A stretch of DNA of 34,527 bases from Myxococcales bacterium. GTDB lineage: Bacteria > Myxococcota_A > Polyangia > Haliangiales > Haliangiaceae. The translations under genes were made by a program, and so were the position numbers. The notes beneath the pieces are model-generated. The model ran no database searches, was not told where the DNA came from, and was given only the letters and a program-made list of their open reading frames with translations. Where the stretch lies: assembly GCA_016794525.1 (NCBI GenBank), contig JAEUJY010000110.1:1-34527 (forward strand). Reading direction: 5' to 3'. Position 1 is the stretch's first letter. The number at the start of each line of letters is the position of its first letter. This document shows positions 911-26,768 of this stretch, piece after piece.

Positions 911-1378
911 TCACATGTTGTCGAACTTGGCCATCGCGGCCTGCACCGCAGGATCGCCGCCGCACTTCTCGAGGCCAGGCCGGAGCTTCCCGGTCGCGGC
1001 CTCGACGCGGTCCTTGTGCGCGTCCATGTACGCGTCGGCCTTGGCGTCGACCTCCTGGTTGCCCTCGAGCTGCTTGGCCTTCATCAACAGCGGCTGGTGC
1101 TTGTCGATCGCGGCGGTGATCGCCGTGGCCATCGCGCCGCAGCTGGCCTGGTTGGCGTCGACGGCGACGCTGAGCTCCTCGAGGAACACGACGGTCTGCT
1201 CGAACATGCTCTCGAGCTCGGCGTCGGTCGGCGTCGCCGCCGGCGGCGGCGTGGCCGGGTCGGTGCCGGCGTCGGTGACCGCCGGCTCGGTGGGGGCCGG
1301 CGGCGTGGTCGCGGCGGGCTTGGGCTTGCTGCAGCCGAGCGCGGCGACGGCGATCAGGGACGCGACGAACATACGCAT
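911..1378 (-). CDS. Small lipoprotein, divergent member of six-gene array
   Basis: This is a 155-residue lipoprotein starting at MRMFVASLIA, with lipobox VAALGC at about residue 16. A Pro/Ala/Thr-rich linker runs to about residue 50. The helical C-terminal domain starts TDAELESMFEQ and keeps the two family cysteines, one in NQASCG and one in LEKCGG. Compared with its neighbours it lacks the WM..HM..MP block, having DAYMDAHKDR in the same place, and it ends AAMAKFDNM where the others have AMKR. It is therefore an early-diverged paralog. An upstream in-frame ATG at 1414 would add 12 basic residues ahead of a good signal peptide and is rejected. Function is unknown; anchoring in the envelope is inferred from the lipobox. 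Confidence 0.85.
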   Translation of the reverse strand: MRMFVASLIAVAALGCSKPKPAATTPPAPTEPAVTDAGTDPATPPPAATPTDAELESMFEQTVVFLEELSVAVDANQASCGAMATAITAAIDKHQPLLMKAKQLEGNQEVDAKADAYMDAHKDRVEAATGKLRPGLEKCGGDPAVQAAMAKFDNM

Positions 1379-1457
1379 GCCCCGACGATGGCACGGGCCG
1401 CGAGCGCTCGCCACCGCCGGCGCCGGTCGATCGCCGCCGGGGCGACGTCGAGGTTGG

Positions 1458-1931
1458 CTACAGGTCGGTGAGCCGCTTCATCGCCGCGTCGAAGGCGGGC
1501 TGCCCGGCGCAGGTCTGCCCGGCGTTGCTCACCTTCATCACGTGCGGCATCACGTCGTCCATGTGCGCCTGCATCCATACCTCGATCTTCTGATCCATCG
1601 CGGGGTTGTCCTTCCAGGTCCTGGAGACCGCGACGAACTCGCGGTTCGCGTCGATCGTGGCGTCGATGCCGGCGGCCAGCTTGCCGCAGTCGCTGCCGGC
1701 GGCGTCAACCGCGTCGCCTACCGCGATGAACATCGCCATCGCCTGGCGCATCACCGCCTCGACCTCGGCGTCGGTCGGCACGCGGGCGTCGGCCGGTGGC
1801 GGCGTCGGCTCGGCCGGCGGTGGCGCATCCTCAGCGGGCTTGTTGGCGAGTGTCGGTTGTCCCGCCGGCGGCTTCGACGAGCCACCGCACGCGATCACGG
1901 CCATCATCCCGAGCGCGACGAGCTGCTTCAT
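1458..1931 (-). CDS. Small lipoprotein, array member
   Basis: This is a 157-residue lipoprotein starting MKQLVALGMMAVIACGGSSK, with the lipid-modified Cys probably at residue 15. A Pro/Ala-rich linker covers about residues 16-50. The helical domain has the array signature: TDAEVEAVMRQAMAMF, then DAAGSDCGKL, a WK.NP.MD segment, VWMQAHMDDVMP, and AGQTCAGQPAFDAAMKRLTDL. Two Cys are conserved across all array members and could form one disulfide. The gene is very similar to the next two upstream, including about 20 bases before the start codon, which indicates tandem duplication. I do not recognise a named family; a periplasm-facing anchored role is inferred only from the lipobox. Confidence 0.9.
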   Translation of the reverse strand: MKQLVALGMMAVIACGGSSKPPAGQPTLANKPAEDAPPPAEPTPPPADARVPTDAEVEAVMRQAMAMFIAVGDAVDAAGSDCGKLAAGIDATIDANREFVAVSRTWKDNPAMDQKIEVWMQAHMDDVMPHVMKVSNAGQTCAGQPAFDAAMKRLTDL

Positions 1932-1976
1932 AGGCCGCCGAGCATCGCACGCCCGCGCGCGGCGTGCGGCGCGCGA

Positions 1977-2456
1977 TCAGAGCTCCTCGAACCGCTTCAT
2001 CACTGCGTCGAAGGCGGGCTGCCCGGCGCAGGTCTGGCTGGCGGTGCCGACCTTCATCACGTGCGGCATGAGCTCGTTCATGTGGACCTGCATCCACGCC
2101 TCGGCCTTCTGGTCCATCGCGGCGTTGCCCTTCCACTGCTTGGCGGTGGCCAGGAACTCGCGGTTGGCGTCGAGCGTCGCGCTCAGGCCAGCCGCGATCT
2201 TGCCGCAGTCGCTGCCGGCGGCGTCGACCGCGTCGCCCATCGCGATGAACATCGTCATCGCCTGGGCCATCATCGCCTCGACCTCGGCGTCGGTCGGCCC
2301 GCCGGTGTCGGCGGCCGGCGGCGGCGCGGGCTCGGTCGGTGGCGGCGGCGCCTCCTCGGCCGGCTTGTTGGCCAAGGTCGGCTGTTCCGCCGGCGGCTTC
2401 GACGATCCGCCGCACGCGATCAGACACATCAACCCGGCCGCGACGAGCTGCTTCAT
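1977..2456 (-). CDS. Small lipoprotein, array member
   Basis: This is a 159-residue lipoprotein starting MKQLVAAGLMCLIACGGSSK. An ATG at 2495 would add 13 residues (MAARRIACDAGQH) and is rejected, because MKQL aligns with the starts of the two flanking paralogs. A Pro/Glu/Ala linker precedes the helical domain: TDAEVEAMMAQAMTMF, DAAGSDCGKIAAG, WKGNAAMDQKAEAWMQVHMNELMPHVMKV, and SQTCAGQPAFDAVMKRFEEL. It is probably the closest relative of the 1458-1931 gene, sharing the AGQPAFDA tail and the NKPAE linker. The product is presumably anchored to a membrane facing the periplasm; its function is unknown. Confidence 0.9.
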   Translation of the reverse strand: MKQLVAAGLMCLIACGGSSKPPAEQPTLANKPAEEAPPPPTEPAPPPAADTGGPTDAEVEAMMAQAMTMFIAMGDAVDAAGSDCGKIAAGLSATLDANREFLATAKQWKGNAAMDQKAEAWMQVHMNELMPHVMKVGTASQTCAGQPAFDAVMKRFEEL

Positions 2457-2510
2457 ATGCTGACCAGCATCGCACGCGATCCGGCGCGCGGCCACGGGTC
2501 GAGTCGCGCG

Positions 2511-2987
2511 CTACTCCAGCTCGTCGAAGCGCTTCATCACGGCCTGGAACTCGGCGTCGTCAGCGCACTTCTGACCGGCGGTGCCGATCTTGATCATCGC
2601 GGGCATCATCCCGTCCATGTGGACCTTCATCCACGCCTCGGTTCGCGCGTCCATGTCGGCGCTCCCCTTCCAGCGCTTGGCGGTGTCGATGAACGCGTGG
2701 TTGTCGTCGAGCACCCCGACGAACCCGACCGACAGCTTGTGGCAGTCGCCGGCGGCGGCGTCGGTGGCGGCGGCCATGGCGTCGAACATGGCGATGGCCT
2801 GGTTCATGGTCGCCTCGAACTCGGCGTCGGAGACGCTGCTGGCGTCGAAGGCGGGCGCGGGCTCGGGCGCCGGCGCGGGCTCGGGGACCGGCGGTGGCGC
2901 GTTGGTCACCGTCGGCTGCTGCGCCGGCTTGGACGATCCACCGCACGCGATCACGCACATCAACCCAACCGTGACGAGCTGCTTCAT
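2511..2987 (-). CDS. Small lipoprotein, array member
   Basis: This is a 158-residue lipoprotein starting MKQLVTVGLMCVIACGGSSK. An upstream start at 3044 is rejected because the extra 19 residues are polar and precede a complete signal peptide. The linker is rich in PEPAPAPEP units. The domain has SDAEFEATMNQAIAMFDAMAAATDAAAGDCHKL, then WKGSADMDARTEAWMKVHMDGMMPAMIKIGTAGQKCADDAEFQAVMKRFDELE. It is intermediate between its neighbours: the N-terminus matches 1977-2456, while the C-terminal AGQKCA...MKR matches 3136-3729. This fits stepwise tandem duplication. Upstream, at 3065-3094, lies a terminator-like hairpin, so this gene may need its own promoter in the 2988-3064 gap. I could not identify one. 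Confidence 0.9.
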   Translation of the reverse strand: MKQLVTVGLMCVIACGGSSKPAQQPTVTNAPPPVPEPAPAPEPAPAFDASSVSDAEFEATMNQAIAMFDAMAAATDAAAGDCHKLSVGFVGVLDDNHAFIDTAKRWKGSADMDARTEAWMKVHMDGMMPAMIKIGTAGQKCADDAEFQAVMKRFDELE

Positions 2988-3064
2988 AGGCGGGTGAGCA
3001 TCACACGCCGACAGGCCCGCTGCCACGGACTGGCACGCTCGCACGCGCGGGGCCCAAAACGCCG

Positions 3065-3094
3065 ACGAGCCGACCGCGGGTGCGATCGGCTCGT
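3065..3094 (-). terminator. Hairpin terminator after the 3136-3729 lipoprotein gene
   Basis: Arms ACGAGCCGA (3065-3073) and TCGGCTCGT (3086-3094) are perfect complements. An inner CGC/GCG stem closes a four-base loop, with one mismatch between the two stems. On the minus strand the hairpin is followed after seven bases by four T residues (plus-strand AAAA at 3054-3057). It sits 41 bases past the stop codon at 3136. The short T-tract makes it a modest intrinsic terminator. Confidence 0.5.
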
Positions 3095-3135
3095 GGTGAG
3101 CGTCGGCGCGTCGAGCGCGCGTCGGCTGGGAGGAC

Positions 3136-3729
3136 CTACTTCAGGTCGTCCATGCGCTTCATCACCTCGGTGAACTTCGCGTCCGAGGCGCACTTCTGAC
3201 CGGCGGCGCCGATCTTCATCATCGACGGCATCATCGCCTCCATCTTCCCCTTCATCCACTCCTCCGCCTTCTTGTCCATCTCGGGGTTGTCCTTCCACTT
3301 CTTGGCCGACTCGATGAAGTCCTTGTTGTCGTCCATCACCTTGGCCATGCCGTCGGCGAGCTTGCCGCAGTCATCGCCCGCGGCGTCGACCGCCTTGGCC
3401 ATCCCGTCGAACATGGCGAGCGCCTTGTTCATCATCGCCTCGAACTCGGCGTCCGACGGCATCGCGGCGCCACCGGCGGGGGCGGCGGTGTCGCCAGCCG
3501 GAGCGGCGGTGCCCGCGGCCGGGTCAGCCGGAGCGGCGGTGCCCGCGGCCGGAGCGGCGGTGCCCGCGGCCGGAGCGGCGGTGCCCGCGGCGGGAGCAGC
3601 GGTGCCCGCGGCGGTGCCAGCGGCCGGCTTGTTCTCGGTGGTCGCGGGCTTGTTGCCCTCGTCCTTCTTCTTGCAGCCGGTGAAGGCGATGGCGGACGCG
3701 AGGAGGGCAATGACAGTCAGGCGCTTCAT
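3136..3729 (-). CDS. Small lipoprotein with AAPAAGT repeat linker, array member
   Basis: This is a 197-residue lipoprotein starting MKRLTVIALLASAIAFTGCKKKDEG, with the lipidated Cys probably at residue 19 followed by a Lys-rich patch. About 60 residues of linker are built from AAPAAGT-type heptads. The helical domain shows the array signature most cleanly: SDAEFEAMMNKALAMFDGMAKAVDAAGDDCGKLADGM, then WKDNPEMDKKAEEWMKGKMEAMMPSMMKIGAAGQKCA, then MKRMDDLK. It is unusually Lys-rich for this region, where Arg normally dominates. Lys-rich, low-bias coding can mark high expression, which is inference. It has its own leader: an AAAGGA Shine-Dalgarno at 3741-3746 and a candidate promoter further upstream. 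An ATG at 3954 is rejected because it reads through non-coding bases and the neighbouring gene. Confidence 0.92.
   Translation of the reverse strand: MKRLTVIALLASAIAFTGCKKKDEGNKPATTENKPAAGTAAGTAAPAAGTAAPAAGTAAPAAGTAAPADPAAGTAAPAGDTAAPAGGAAMPSDAEFEAMMNKALAMFDGMAKAVDAAGDDCGKLADGMAKVMDDNKDFIESAKKWKDNPEMDKKAEEWMKGKMEAMMPSMMKIGAAGQKCASDAKFTEVMKRMDDLK
3496..3615. repeat. 21-bp tandem repeats encoding AAPAAGT linker
   Basis: Several near-identical 21-bp units of the type gccggagcggcggtgcccgcg run in tandem inside the lipoprotein gene at 3136-3729. Two units are interrupted and the last copies are degenerate. Because 21 is a multiple of three, gain or loss of a unit keeps the frame and only changes linker length. 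This is a coding minisatellite with no spacers, and is not a CRISPR array. Confidence 0.85.
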
Positions 3730-3777
3730 GTTCGGTTTGATCCTTTCGCGCGCGAGGCGCGTTCGTGCGCGGTCTAT

Positions 3778-3807
3778 CCCATAGCCGCGCGCGGCCGGCA
3801 AGAACAA
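3778..3807 (-). promoter_or_regulatory. Possible sigma70-type promoter of the 3136-3729 gene
   Basis: Read on the minus strand, TTGTTC (3807-3802) and TATGGG (3783-3778) are separated by 18 bases. The stretch is relatively A/T-rich in an otherwise extremely GC-rich region. A start near 3771 would leave a leader of about 42 bases containing AAAGGA. The -10 match is only partial, so this is a weak prediction. Confidence 0.3.
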
Positions 3808-3835
3808 CAATGTCATCGCGCGCTTACAGCCGCGA

Positions 3836-4270
3836 TTACAAGTTGAGCGTCGGCATCCGCTCCATCGCGTCCATGACGGAGGGCTCGTCCTTGCAGCGCA
3901 CCAGCCCGGGGCCCATCGCCTCGACCAGCGGGTCCACCTCGGCGGCGCGCGCATTCATGGCCGCGACCAACAGCTTGGACGACTCCGGATCGTGAGCCAG
4001 CGTCAGGGTCTGGTCGAACAGCGGCTGGCTCCGATCGAACAGCTGGCCCAGGGATGTACCCATCGCCTTACAATCGTAGCCCTGGGAGATCTGCACCATC
4101 GTCGCCAGCACCTCCACGAAGGCGTCGGCGACCTCTGCGGCCCCGGCCTCGTCCACCGCGGGGGTCGGCGCTGGCGCGGGCGGGGTCGGGGACGCGGGCG
4201 GGGGGGCCTTGCCGCCGCCCCCGCAGGCCGCGAGCGCACCGATCAGAAGGAGTCGGGGGGCGTTGGTCAT
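3836..4270 (-). CDS. Small lipoprotein, most divergent array member
   Basis: This is a 144-residue lipoprotein starting MTNAPRLLLIGALAACGGGGK, with lipobox LAAC and Cys at about residue 16. A Pro/Ala linker (PPPASPTPPAPAPTP) precedes a helical domain with two Cys at the same relative places as in the other array members: GYDCKAMG and LVRCKDEPSVMDAMERMPTL. The middle of the domain has diverged, lacking the WM..HM block. Its ATG overlaps the TGA of the upstream 625-residue lipoprotein gene (ATGA at 4267-4270), so the two are probably translationally coupled. This ties the array to that large lipoprotein. Function is unknown. Confidence 0.88.
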   Translation of the reverse strand: MTNAPRLLLIGALAACGGGGKAPPPASPTPPAPAPTPAVDEAGAAEVADAFVEVLATMVQISQGYDCKAMGTSLGQLFDRSQPLFDQTLTLAHDPESSKLLVAAMNARAAEVDPLVEAMGPGLVRCKDEPSVMDAMERMPTLNL

Positions 4271-6219: not shown

Positions 6220-7581
<1,362 letters not shown>

Positions 7582-7599
7582 TCGCCTGACCGGGGTCGC

Positions 7600-9306
7600 A
7601 TGATCGGCACGCGCCTCGGCGACTACGAGATCCTGCACGCGCTCAAGTCGGGCGGCATGGGCGACGTGCTGCTGGCGCGGCGCCGCGGCGTGGCCGGCTT
7701 CGAGCAGCTGTGCGCGATCAAGACGGTGCGCGCCGAGCTGGCGGCGACCGAGGTGGCGCGGGCGATGTTCCTCGACGAGGCGCGCCTGCTGGCACGGCTC
7801 ACCCACCCGGGCATCGCGCAGATCATCGACTTCGGCGACCTGGGCGGCACCGCGTACATGGTGATGGAGTACGTCCCGGGCATGAGCTTCCGCACGCTGG
7901 GCGAGCGGCGGCCGCCGCCGGCGGTGCTGTGCCAGGCGATGGCGGCGGCGTGCCGCGGGCTGCACGCCGCCCACGAGCTGCGCGATCTGGTCAGCGGCCA
8001 GCTGCTCGGCGTGGTCCACCGCGACATCAGCCCCGACAACCTGATGCTCGGCTACGACGCGCGGGTCAAGGTGCTCGACTTCGGCATCGCGCTGGTGCGC
8101 GGGCGGCAGGCGCCGGTCACCGAGTTCGGCACGCTCAAGGGCAAGCCGCCGTACATGTCGCCCGAGCAGATCAAGAACCAGCCGATCGATCGCCGCTCGG
8201 ACGTGTTCTCGATGGCGGTGGTGCTGTGGGAGCTGGCGACCGGGCGCCACCTGTTCTCCGGCGACTCGATCTACGCGGTGGCCAAGGCGGTCGAGGAGCA
8301 GCCGATCGTGGCGCCGTCGACGATCGCCGGGCCGCTGCCCGACGGCCTCGACGACCTCGTGCTGGCCGCGCTGGCGCGCGACCCCGACGCGCGGCTGGCC
8401 ACCGCGGCGGCGATGGCCGAGGTGCTCGAGCGCATCGCCGGCGCCGCCACCAGCGTCAGCCTCGAGGCGTGGGCCGAGCGCGCGCTGGCCGGCGAGCGCG
8501 AGCACCACCACCGCTGGCTGGCCCGCGTGCTCGGCGATGGCGGCGGCGGCGGCGCGGCGATCGGGCGGCCCAGCGGCGTCGCGACCGCGGTCGACCTCGC
8601 CGCGGCGGCCACCGGCGCGGGCCGGGTCCCGACCGGCATCGACACCCGCGGCGCGACCGTGCTGGCGACCGGCGAGCGCACCGCGCCGGCCGGCCCGTCG
8701 ACGCGCATGGACGCGGTCACCCACGTCGACGACGGCGAGGCCGCGCCGCCGCGGTCGCGGCGCGGCGTGGTCGCGGCGCTGCTGTTCGTGGCGGTCGCGC
8801 TGGGCGGCGGCGGCGTGTGGCTGGCGACCCGCGGCGGTGGTGGCGCGGCGGCGGCGGGCGGCGACGTCGACGCGGCGATCGCGATCGACGCCGCGGTCGT
8901 CGTGAGCCTCGACGCCGCGCCGGCCGACGCGGCGGTGGTCGTGCCCGCGGTCGTCGACGCCGCGGTCCCGCGCGACGGCGGTGGGCGCGGCCGGGATGGC
9001 GGCGGGCGGGCCGTCGACGCGAGCCGGGCGCCGCTCCCGGTGGACGCCGCGCCGGCGAGCGCGCCGCCGGTCGACGCTGCGCCGGCCGCGGTCACCGCCA
9101 CCGGCTTCCTCGCGGTCGGCGAGTGGACGCCGGCCGCGCTGGTCGTCGTCGACGGCGTCGCCTGGGGCGAGACGCCGATCCTCAAGCGCAAGCTGCCGGT
9201 CGGCAGCCACACGGTCGTGCTGCAGGACCCGCTCGATCGCGCGGTCGTGCACCGCGAGACCGTCGAGATCGTCGCCGGCGAGACCGCCCGCGTGCGGCCG
9301 CGCTGA
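7600..9306 (+). CDS. Transmembrane Ser/Thr protein kinase with PEGA-like tail
   Basis: This is a 568-residue Pkn2-family (Hanks-type) kinase. The cytoplasmic kinase domain (about residues 9-285) has the Gly-loop KSGGMGDV, catalytic Lys41 (AIK), HRDISPDN with Asp142, DFG at 160-162 and MSPEQ. A juxtamembrane linker leads to one membrane helix (about 389-410, [12 protein letters not shown]). An Ala/Asp/Gly-rich stretch with many DAA repeats follows. The C-terminus (about 500-568) resembles a PEGA domain: [38 protein letters not shown]. The layout suggests that an extracytoplasmic cue controls phosphorylation. Its likely substrate is the FHA-sigma54 activator encoded immediately upstream, which is inference from gene order. 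The start ATG has no strong Shine-Dalgarno, but the Gly-loop spacing is right. Confidence 0.95.
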
Positions 9307-24371: not shown

Positions 24372-24549
24372 AGAACACCGAGCGGTTCGAATGCCGTCGC
24401 GAGACGCGGACGTGCGAGGCGGATCCGGGCGCACGCCCGAAGCGCAGCGAGGAGCGTAGGGGCCTACGTGACGAGCGAGCATCGGACGTACGCCCGGAGG
24501 CGCCCGCAAGGTCGCGTCGCAGCAGGCACTTCGAACCGCTCGGTGTTCT
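24372..24549. repeat. 178-nt imperfect palindrome with perfect 20-bp ends
   Basis: The end arms (24372-24391 and 24530-24549) are perfect reverse complements beginning AGAACACCGAG. The interior remains complementary by eye over most of its length, at roughly three quarters. It closes at a small central hairpin, CGTAGG (24455-24460) and CCTACG (24463-24468), around 24461.5. GGCC lies just outside on both sides (24367-24370, one base away; and 24550-24553). It has no coding capacity. It could be a palindromic miniature mobile element (MITE- or REP-like), or a structured RNA or regulatory site. It sits 49 bases upstream of the next gene. Confidence 0.75.
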
Positions 24550-24598: not shown

Positions 24599-25231
24599 AT
24601 GAAGATCGCAGTCCTCGGTTCGGGAACGGTCGGCGAGGTCCTCGCCGACGGCTTTCGCAAGCACGGCCACGACGTGGCCCGCGGGTCGCGCGACCCGGGC
24701 AAGCTCGCCGCGTGGGCCCAGCGCTCCGGCGGCCGCGCCGCGACCTTCGCCGACGCCGCGGCGGGCGCCGACGTGGTCGTGCTGGCGGTCAAGGGCAGCG
24801 CCGCCAGCGAGGCGCTGACGCTGGCCGGCGATCTCACCGGCAAGGTCGTCATCGACGCCACCAACCCGATCGCCGACGCGCCGCCCCAGGACGGCGTGCT
24901 GCGCTTCTTCACCAACCTCGACGAGTCGCTGATGGAGCGGCTGCAGGCGCAGGTACCGGGCGCGCGCTTCGTCAAGGCGTTCTCGTGCGTCGGCAACGCG
25001 TACATGGTCAACCCGTCGCTGCCGGGCGGCCCGCCGACGATGTTCATCTGCGGCAACGACGCCGACGCCAAGGCGGTGGTGCGGTCGATCCTCGATCAGT
25101 TCGGCTGGGACACCGCCGACATGGGCACCGCCACCGCGGCCCGCGCGATCGAGCCGCTGTGCATGCTGTGGTGCATCCCCGGCATGCGCGGCGGCGGCTG
25201 GACCCACGCGTTCAAGCTGCTGCGGGCGTAG
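24599..25231 (+). CDS. NADPH-dependent F420 reductase-like oxidoreductase
   Basis: This is a 210-residue protein. An N-terminal Rossmann fold has GSGTVGEVLADGFRKHGHDV (8-27), a GxGxxG-type nucleotide site, followed by RGSRDP, which is usual for NADP preference. AAAGADVVVLAVKG, VVIDATNPIAD and VKAFSCVGNAYMVNP are the family's conserved blocks. Length and blocks fit the F420_oxidored (NADPH:F420 oxidoreductase-like) family. Many members, including bacterial ones lacking F420, act on other substrates, so the true reaction is open. The start ATG directly follows the 49 bases after the palindrome; no strong Shine-Dalgarno is seen. It is monocistronic by spacing. Confidence 0.9.
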   Translation: MKIAVLGSGTVGEVLADGFRKHGHDVARGSRDPGKLAAWAQRSGGRAATFADAAAGADVVVLAVKGSAASEALTLAGDLTGKVVIDATNPIADAPPQDGVLRFFTNLDESLMERLQAQVPGARFVKAFSCVGNAYMVNPSLPGGPPTMFICGNDADAKAVVRSILDQFGWDTADMGTATAARAIEPLCMLWCIPGMRGGGWTHAFKLLRA

Positions 25232-25348: not shown

Positions 25349-25364
25349 TGGCACGCCGGGTGCT
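25349..25364 (+). promoter_or_regulatory. Near-consensus sigma54 promoter of the GG-leader peptide gene
   Basis: TGGCACGccggGTGCT matches the sigma54 -24/-12 consensus TGGCACG-N4-TTGCW at every fixed position except one (G for T). The invariant GG (25350-25351) and GC (25362-25363) are spaced correctly. Transcription should start near 25375, about 21 bases before the ATG at 25397. GGAG at 25387-25390 serves as Shine-Dalgarno. It lies in the 165-base gap after the reductase gene. Confidence 0.7.
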
Positions 25365-25396: not shown

Positions 25397-25687
25397 ATGC
25401 CCAAGCCCGCGTTCACCGCCATCGATCCCGCCGCCCTCGACGCCGTCACCGGCGGTCGCCGCTCGTCGACCTCGTCGCGGTCCACCTCCGACGACCAGCT
25501 GCTCGACGCGCTCAACGACATCAAGGGCGCGCTGGCCGACCTGGGCAAGCCGCCGGCGCAGTCCAGCAACGGGCTCGATCAGCTGCTGCCGATCTTGATG
25601 ATGCAGCTGCTCAACCCCAACCGGGGTGGCGGCGGCAGCGGCCCGGGCTGCGGCGGCGGCAACGGCTGCGGCGGCGGGCGCTGGTAG
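25397..25687 (+). CDS. Double-glycine-leader peptide, putative secreted or bacteriocin-like precursor
   Basis: This is a 96-residue protein starting MPKPAFTAIDPAALDAVTGG. The GG at 19-20 with Val17, Leu14 and Ile9 at -4, -7 and -12 is the classic double-glycine leader pattern recognised by peptidase-containing ABC exporters. The presumed 76-residue core has a Ser-rich start, a helical part (DDQLLDALNDIKGALADLG), a hydrophobic run (LDQLLPILMMQLL) and a Gly-rich tail with two Cys (GCGGGNGCGGGRW). No C39-peptidase exporter, immunity or maturation gene is in the window. Bacteriocin, RiPP or another secreted peptide are all possible. A strong Shine-Dalgarno and a sigma54-type promoter precede it. 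Confidence 0.85.
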   Translation: MPKPAFTAIDPAALDAVTGGRRSSTSSRSTSDDQLLDALNDIKGALADLGKPPAQSSNGLDQLLPILMMQLLNPNRGGGGSGPGCGGGNGCGGGRW

Positions 25688-25703: not shown

Positions 25704-26768
25704 TCACTCGCCGGTCGGCTCGTCGGCCGGCGCCGCGTCGGGCTTGGCCTCGACCGCGGCGGCGCACGCCTTCCACACCTTCAGCTCGCCGGAGTCGGTG
25801 GTGACGACGCCGATCGAGCCCGCCGACGGCGAGCCGGCGATCACCACCAGCTCGCCCGGACCGCCGCGCACCAGCGCCGACTCGCCGGGGTTGCCGTTGG
25901 CGCGGGTGCCGTCGGTCTTGTCGTCGCCGGCCCACAACGCGACCAGGTCGATCGTCTTGGCGACCGCGCCGGTGGCGACGTCCTGGATCGCGATCGTGCC
26001 GGCGCCTTCCTCGAGGAACGCCCACTGGGTGCCGTCGACCTGGACGCCGCTGGTGCCGAACGTGCCGAAGTCCTTGCCGCCGACGTCGGCGAGCTTCTTG
26101 CCCTTGGCGGTGTACAGCGCGCCGCGCGCGTCGGGGCCGGCGCACACGCTGGCGCTGATGTAGACGGTGTCGCCGAGCATCGCGGCGCTGCCGCACTTGT
26201 AGTCGCCCTTGGCGTACTTGATGGTCGCCAGCTTCCTCTTCTTGCCGACGTCCCACACCTCGGCGACGCCCTTGCCGGCCGCCGCGTCGCCCAGCATCGC
26301 GACGACGGTGGTGCCGGCGTCGTTGGTGACGGCGACGATCGGCTCGCTGGCGCCGCGGCCGACCTTGGGCTTGAGCGTCGTGCAGCTGGCGTCGCCGCTG
26401 TCGGCGGTGACGCACACCTTGACCTCGGTCGGCGTGGTCTGCAGGTAGGCCTTGCCGGCGGCGAGCGACGGGCTCTGGGGCGCGGGCGCCTCGGCCATCG
26501 CGGCGTACTTGCCGTCGGTGAGGCCGACCGAGAAGCACGCCGAGGCGTCGCCGCCGTCGGACGCACAGAACTGCGCGTCGGTGCCGTTCGAGGTCGCGCT
26601 GGCGATCAGCGCCGGCTCGGTGGCCGGCACACACACTGGCGGGGGCGGCGGCGGCGGTGGCTTGGGCGCCTCCACCACGACGGGCTTCTTCACCTCGGCC
26701 GGCTTGCCCTTGCCACCACAGGCGGCGGCGAGCCCGGCCACGGTCACCAGCATCGAACGGAGCTTCAT
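25704..26768 (-). CDS. Secreted lipoprotein with Pro-rich linker
   Basis: This is a 354-residue protein starting MKLRSMLVTVAGLAAACGGKG, with lipobox AAAC at about residue 17. A Lys/Val/Pro linker contains eight Pro in a row (about residues 37-44). The mature domain has repeated beta segments such as VTNDAGTTVVAMLGDAA, VAEVWDVGKKRKLATIKY and QDVATGAVAKTIDLVALW. This pattern suggests a small beta-propeller with several disulfides (FCASDGGDASAC, VCVTADSGDASC). No catalytic motif is seen. It converges with the peptide gene (16-base gap) and is divergent from the 26878 gene. Function is unknown. Confidence 0.85.
   Translation of the reverse strand: MKLRSMLVTVAGLAAACGGKGKPAEVKKPVVVEAPKPPPPPPPPVCVPATEPALIASATSNGTDAQFCASDGGDASACFSVGLTDGKYAAMAEAPAPQSPSLAAGKAYLQTTPTEVKVCVTADSGDASCTTLKPKVGRGASEPIVAVTNDAGTTVVAMLGDAAAGKGVAEVWDVGKKRKLATIKYAKGDYKCGSAAMLGDTVYISASVCAGPDARGALYTAKGKKLADVGGKDFGTFGTSGVQVDGTQWAFLEEGAGTIAIQDVATGAVAKTIDLVALWAGDDKTDGTRANGNPGESALVRGGPGELVVIAGSPSAGSIGVVTTDSGELKVWKACAAAVEAKPDAAPADEPTGE

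What the first reader, a model, noticed from the sequence alone, without database searches (positions are those of the whole stretch)
25397..25687. Double-glycine-leader peptide with no exporter or immunity gene nearby
Leader positions -1/-2 (GG), -4 (Val), -7 (Leu) and -12 (Ile) fit the pattern for peptidase-containing exporters. The core is long for a bacteriocin and has a hydrophobic run and a Gly-rich tail with two Cys. It could be an orphan secreted effector served by an exporter elsewhere.
Basis: partly seen in the sequence, partly recalled or inferred. Interest (0 to 1): 0.65.

Follow-up and report, generated by a model that had tools for sequence, protein, structure and literature searches.

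The report
Dispersed cargo of a C39 exporter
This small gene encodes a precursor of a secreted protein whose leader is predicted to be cut off and exported by a single secretion machine encoded elsewhere in the genome, which appears to serve at least seven scattered small proteins switched on through the same type of (sigma-54) promoter.

Summary
Window 25397-25687(+) is a real 96-aa gene with a double-glycine leader (F-15, I-12, L-7, V-4, GG) and no exporter or immunity gene in the window. The same Kofleriaceae-like genome has one C39-peptidase ABC exporter, on contig C135, in a type I secretion cluster (two HlyD-like adaptors, TolC-like channel, FHA/sigma-54 activator). Two paralogues of the window peptide lie ~7 kb from it. 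I count seven precursors with this leader in the genome, on four contigs. The peptide family occurs in 11 of 317 class genomes; among 56 relatives it tracks the >=70%-identical exporter (9/9 versus 2/47, p=7e-9; p=7e-5 within the two genera). The unexpected part: a sigma-54 -24/-12 promoter lies 48 bp upstream of the window gene, and all five transcription units carrying the seven precursors have one, as do TolC and lipoprotein genes of the cluster. This looks like a sigma-54-controlled, one-exporter/many-cargo regulon of a new GG-protein family. What the mature proteins do is unresolved: surface/matrix component slightly favoured over bacteriocin or signal. No wet evidence.

The parts
25349..25364 (+). 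sigma-54 -24/-12 promoter TGGCACGCCGGGTGCT (published consensus TGGCAC N5-7 TTGCT)
   Evidence: orthologue in G006 has TGGCACATGGTGTGCT at -38; consensus from PMC12316311
25387..25390 (+). GGAG Shine-Dalgarno-like sequence
   Evidence: read from sequence
25397..25687 (+). precursor gene of a GG-leader small protein, 96 aa
25397..25456 (+). 20-aa leader MPKPAFTAIDPAALDAVTGG, predicted cleavage after G20
   Evidence: predicted helix 11-18
25478..25546 (+). predicted amphipathic helix, residues 28-50 of precursor
   Evidence: moderate confidence, pLDDT ~80
25574..25612 (+). predicted hydrophobic helix, residues 60-72 (DQLLPILMMQLL region)
25625..25684 (+). Gly-rich disordered tail with two Cys and C-terminal Arg-Trp
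25704..26768 (-). neighbouring lipoprotein gene (no Pfam match); next to the peptide also in G006 but present in all 7 genus genomes, so not specific to the system
24599..25231 (+). F420-dependent NADP oxidoreductase-like gene; neighbour, not conserved next to the G006 orthologue

Best explanation
The gene encodes a precursor whose 20-aa leader is recognised and cut after Gly20 by the C39 peptidase domain of the single peptidase-containing ABC exporter on contig C135. The 76-aa mature protein is exported through a type I conduit (HlyD-like adaptor, TolC-like channel). It is one of at least seven precursors with the same leader scattered over four contigs. Sigma-54 promoters drive them and parts of the export cluster, plausibly through the FHA/sigma-54 activator encoded just behind the exporter. 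Shown computationally: leader, paralogy, exporter uniqueness, linkage, co-occurrence, promoter sites. Inferred: cleavage, export, and which activator acts. Best guess on role (about 45%): a cell-surface or extracellular-matrix small protein like the cyanobacterial EbfG proteins; a bacteriocin-like toxin (about 30%) or a signal (about 15%) are open. The confidence given is for the export-in-trans and sigma-54 statement, not for the role.
For: One C39-ABC exporter in the genome with OEP, HlyD, ABC/C39 and sigma-54-activator Pfam matches in its cluster. Two paralogues lie in that cluster. The same arrangement (GG peptides, OM-barrel protein, L-domain lipoprotein, TolC, HlyD, C39-ABC, HlyD, FHA-sigma54) recurs across two genera. 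Exporter >=70% identical versus peptide presence: 9/9 versus 2/47, p=7e-9; within the two genera p=7e-5. Family found in 11 of 317 class genomes. Sigma-54 sites (score >=12) upstream of 15/32 peptide genes versus 3/308 non-system genes, p=8e-15. At score >=11.5: 19/32 versus 0/32 with reversed consensus or opposite strand and 0.6% of shuffles. In the own genome 5/5 transcription units carrying the 7 precursors have a site, and one rpoN gene is present.
Against: No biochemical data. Contigs prevent an absolute claim of a single exporter (97% complete). G021 and G027 have peptides but no >=70% exporter was found (draft genomes, 88% and 73% complete). dN/dS for orthologue pairs is only 0.6-0.9, so constraint on the core is weak. 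Sigma-54-like sites also precede many unrelated envelope-protein genes here, so control by this particular activator is not shown. My promoter weights were set by hand after seeing the window's own site. Related genomes are not independent samples.
Confidence: 0.85

Rival explanations
1. The peptides are class II microcin/bacteriocin precursors exported to kill competitors.
For: Leader type and export cluster are those of class II microcins (PMC9746304). The same genome encodes a glycine-zipper, bacteriocin-like precursor with the same kind of leader, next to a small hydrophobic protein (L195:6342-6829). Cores diverge quickly.
Against: No immunity gene beside the window peptide or most paralogues; 5-8 hits per genome in most carriers with low-complexity Met/Gly tails are atypical for microcins. 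Neisserial GG peptides looking like microcins had no detectable antimicrobial activity (PMC11798529).
Confidence: 0.3
2. The precursor is a RiPP substrate modified (for instance by an ATP-grasp enzyme) before leader removal.
For: One paralogue weakly matches TIGR04497 (ATP-grasp target RiPP), 20.7 bits, below its 32-bit cut-off. A 411-aa protein of unknown fold is apparently co-transcribed with that paralogue and occurs in 11/11 peptide genomes versus 3/45 others.
Against: No known modifying enzyme was recognised near the peptides or the exporter; the window peptide itself has no family match.
Confidence: 0.12
3. The ORF is spurious or a decayed paralogue, and the GG motif is a chance feature of a GC-rich genome.
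For: Weak purifying selection estimate (dN/dS about 0.6); a Gly-rich tail is easily produced at high GC.
Against: Orthologue in G006 with 69% identity and the same tail GGGNGCGGGR[WY], own sigma-54 promoter and RBS, codon-position signal, paralogues at E down to 1e-17.
Confidence: 0.03

Closest known systems
EbfG1-4 / PteB of Synechococcus elongatus (PMC4997328, PMC9981879)
   Same: Several small GG-motif proteins served by one C39-peptidase transporter in a Gram-negative-type bacterium; EbfG proteins are needed for biofilm, EbfG4 is surface/matrix located and EbfG2 forms fibrils.
   Different: EbfG genes form one four-gene operon; here precursors are scattered over four contigs under sigma-54 promoters. 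No sequence relationship was tested; function here unknown.
Class II microcins with CvaAB-type exporters (PMC9746304, PMC10233263)
   Same: GG leader, C39-ABC plus HlyD-like adaptor plus TolC-like channel.
   Different: No immunity gene, larger cargo set, no demonstrated killing, exporter in trans.
NHLP/N11P precursors with NHLM transporters and cyanobacterial GG precursors (PMC3140520; TIGR03796)
   Same: The exporter's best NCBIfam match is TIGR03796 NHLM_micro_ABC1.
   Different: 641 bits against a cut-off of 853; no nitrile-hydratase-like or Nif11-like leader match, no second peptidase-less ABC protein in the cluster.
HetC of Nostoc, a PCAT without a known nearby substrate (PMC10986499)
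   Same: A peptidase-containing exporter in a multicellular Gram-negative whose substrates may lie elsewhere in the genome.
   Different: Here the substrates can be proposed from shared leader and promoter.

Membership tests
GG-leader substrates of C39 (PCAT) exporters | short N-terminal leader with hydrophobic residues at -4, -7, -12 and GG/GA/GS at -2/-1 | tested here: met
GG-leader substrates of C39 (PCAT) exporters | C39-peptidase ABC exporter encoded in the same genome and linked to the family | tested here: met
GG-leader substrates of C39 (PCAT) exporters | leader is cleaved after GG and the core is secreted | not testable with these tools
   needs biochemistry or mass spectrometry
Class II microcin / bacteriocin | dedicated immunity protein encoded next to the precursor | tested here: not met
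   no candidate among window neighbours; the neighbouring lipoprotein is in all 7 genus genomes with or without peptide
Class II microcin / bacteriocin | kills or inhibits other bacteria | not testable with these tools
   no activity data
NHLP / Nif11-type RiPP precursors (NHLM export) | exporter above the TIGR03796 cut-off and nitrile-hydratase-like or Nif11-like leader | tested here: not met
   640.9 versus 853.3 bits; no Pfam/NCBIfam leader match
ATP-grasp target RiPP (TIGR04497) | score above 32 bits and a neighbouring ATP-grasp ligase | tested here: not met
   one paralogue at 20.7 bits, window peptide none; no ATP-grasp among exporter-cluster or neighbouring genes scanned with Pfam
sigma-54 regulon | -24/-12 element TGGCAC N5-7 TTGCT upstream of the gene, beyond chance | tested here: met
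   consensus from PMC12316311
sigma-54 regulon | transcription depends on sigma-54 and an enhancer-binding protein | not testable with these tools
   rpoN and an FHA activator are present; dependence untested

The most novel reading that the evidence does not exclude
A lineage-restricted, sigma-54-switched secretion regulon in which one C39 type I exporter serves a dispersed, expanding family of self-assembling Met/Gly-rich small proteins with a conserved basic-plus-Trp/Cys C-terminal end, aided by a co-occurring 411-aa protein of unknown fold, to build cell-surface or matrix structures in myxobacteria of the Kofleriaceae group.
Probability: 0.3. Interest if true: 0.7.

Novelty: new variant of a known kind. 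Interest (0 to 1): 0.5.

Why it matters
GG-leader exporters in Gram-negative bacteria often lack an obvious neighbouring substrate (the stated problem for HetC, PMC10986499). Here leader plus promoter identify a set of scattered substrates for one exporter, and predict a common mode of regulation for all of them, so export, processing and function become directly testable. The peptide family itself has no Pfam or NCBIfam match above cut-off.

Tried and rejected
Pfam/NCBIfam gave no family for the peptide. Genome-wide counting of TGGCACN6TGCT shows no excess over the reversed pattern (44 versus 41), so the promoter claim rests on position upstream of genes, not on overall frequency. I considered the neighbouring lipoprotein as an immunity gene: rejected as specific partner because it is a core gene of the genus. 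AlphaFold gave only a low-confidence peptide model (pTM 0.25), so no fold search was made with it. Foldseek on the OM-barrel protein of the cluster gave generic beta-barrels (OpcA, OmpT) and a weak GNA1162 match, not a function. Exporter neighbourhoods at 45-59% identity mostly lack such peptides, except G010, where two larger GG-leader proteins sit at the equivalent place.

Full report
1. Observation. The ORF at 25397-25687(+) codes for MPKPAFTAIDPAALDAVTGG|RRSSTSSRSTSDDQLLDALNDIKGALADLGKPPAQSSNGLDQLLPILMMQLLNPNRGGGGSGPGCGGGNGCGGGRW. Codon-position GC content is that of a gene (0.66/0.58/0.96). Neighbours are an F420-dependent oxidoreductase-like gene and a lipoprotein gene without Pfam match. 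Nothing in the window was recognised as a C39 exporter or an immunity gene.

2. Relatives in the same genome. The window lies in a 9.8 Mb, 97%-complete draft. The exporter's closest named relative is a Kofleriaceae metagenome-assembled genome (89% identity), so the organism is very probably a member of that myxobacterial group. A protein search found three clear paralogues (E 1e-17 to 4e-9) and a weak fourth with a different core. A leader-only profile placed five members far above noise and pointed to two more. Total: seven precursors with an F..I....L..V.GG-type leader (one, C22:73368, lacks the F) on contigs C12, C139, C135 (two) and C22 (three). One of the C22 precursors has a glycine-zipper core like class IIb bacteriocins and a small hydrophobic protein beside it.

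3. Exporter. PF03412 hits only one ABC exporter in the genome, a 748-aa protein on C135. Pfam identifies C39, ABC membrane and ABC ATPase domains in it, OEP in the TolC-like gene, HlyD domains in two adaptor genes, and FHA plus sigma-54 interaction domains in the gene behind them. By sequence the exporter aligns over its full length with ComA and PCAT1-type transporters of the PDB. The DCG, HFVV and DPAVG segments expected to carry the C39 catalytic Cys, His and Asp are present in its sequence; their identification rests on general knowledge of the family. Two peptide genes lie in the same cluster. The same gene order recurs in G006 and in genus g5 genomes.

4. Co-occurrence. Among 56 relatives, genomes with an exporter at least 70% identical all have the peptides (9/9), and only 2 of the other 47 do, both incomplete drafts (p=7e-9). 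Restricted to the two genera concerned the association holds (p=7e-5). In 317 genomes of the class only these 11 carry the family. A 411-aa protein without Pfam match, apparently in an operon with the C139 paralogue, follows the same distribution (11/11 versus 3/45).

5. Promoter. Upstream of the window gene lies TGGCACGCCGGGTGCT, a sigma-54 type -24/-12 element. Scoring 150 bp upstream of 32 family genes gave sites at score >=12 in 15, against 3 of 308 non-system genes (p=8e-15). Controls with reversed consensus or opposite strand gave none at score >=11.5 against 19/32. In the own genome every one of the five transcription units with a precursor has such a site, counting the C135 pair as part of the operon headed by the L-domain lipoprotein gene (operon inferred from short gaps). 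The TolC gene has one too. Genes without a site of their own are mostly later genes of such runs. The paper used for the consensus reports high numbers of sigma-54 activators in Myxococcota (PMC12316311). Which activator acts is inferred from proximity only, and sigma-54-like sites precede many envelope-protein genes in this genome.

6. Core. Predicted structure: helix in the leader, helix 28-50, hydrophobic helix 60-72, disordered tail (low overall confidence). Family tails differ, but 17 of 35 end in Trp or Cys against 5 of 303 other proteins, usually after basic residues. Orthologues between the two peptide-carrying species of the genus are 52-72% identical with dN/dS 0.6-0.9, so the cores evolve quickly or under relaxed constraint; codon bias at this GC content compresses dS, so these ratios are rough.

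7. Mechanism and rivals. The best reading is that of a C39 type I secretion substrate in trans. It works like GG-leader export; membership in microcins is not claimed, since the immunity-gene feature was tested and not met. Its role outside the cell is open. I favour a surface or matrix role by analogy with EbfG, because of the multi-copy low-complexity cargo, the lack of immunity genes and the shared promoter type with envelope proteins, but this is inference.

8. Novelty. Parts are known kinds; the family, the dispersed cargo set and the shared sigma-54 promoters were not found described in the literature searched, which covers open-licence papers only.

Noticed in passing
L195:6342-6829 (own genome, contig C22 about 104,341-104,828, minus strand): Class IIb-like glycine-zipper bacteriocin precursor carrying the same kind of leader (FAAIDLDTLDAVTGG) with a sigma-54-like site upstream and a 69-aa hydrophobic glycine-zipper protein next to it, a possible immunity or partner protein.
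   Followed up: partly
own genome, loci L254-L295: Of about 42 TGGCACN6TGCT sites examined, about 20 are followed by a start codon exactly 12-13 nt after the element, mostly of lipoprotein or signal-peptide genes: sigma-54 promoters that would give leaderless or nearly leaderless mRNAs.
   Followed up: partly
L012:6622-7857 and relatives: 411-aa protein without Pfam match, directly behind a GG peptide gene in two species (overlapping or 4 bp apart) and present in all 11 peptide-carrying genomes but only 3 of 45 others.
   Followed up: partly
L011:6415-8088 and relatives: Conserved protein of the export cluster: N-terminal alpha/beta domain, long acidic low-complexity linker, C-terminal outer-membrane beta-barrel; a weak structural match to lipoprotein GNA1162.
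   Followed up: partly
L230:15512-17677 (G010): Beside a 59%-identical exporter, at the equivalent place, two larger proteins (204 and 391 aa) with GG-type leaders.
   Followed up: no
window 911-3954: Tandem array of related small lipoproteins (MKQLV..ACGGSSKP type) on the minus strand.
   Followed up: no
window 24373-24391 and 24531-24549: Inverted repeat GAACACCGAGCGGTTCGAA / TTCGAACCGCTCGGTGTTC about 140 bp apart upstream of the oxidoreductase gene; could be a small mobile or terminator-like element.
   Followed up: no
window 6220-9306: Another FHA/sigma-54-activator-type gene directly followed by a protein-kinase-like gene.
   Followed up: no
window 25704-26768 and L303-L308: Lipoprotein gene present in all seven genus genomes; only in the two peptide-carrying species does it lie next to the peptide gene, in opposite relative orientations.
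   Followed up: yes
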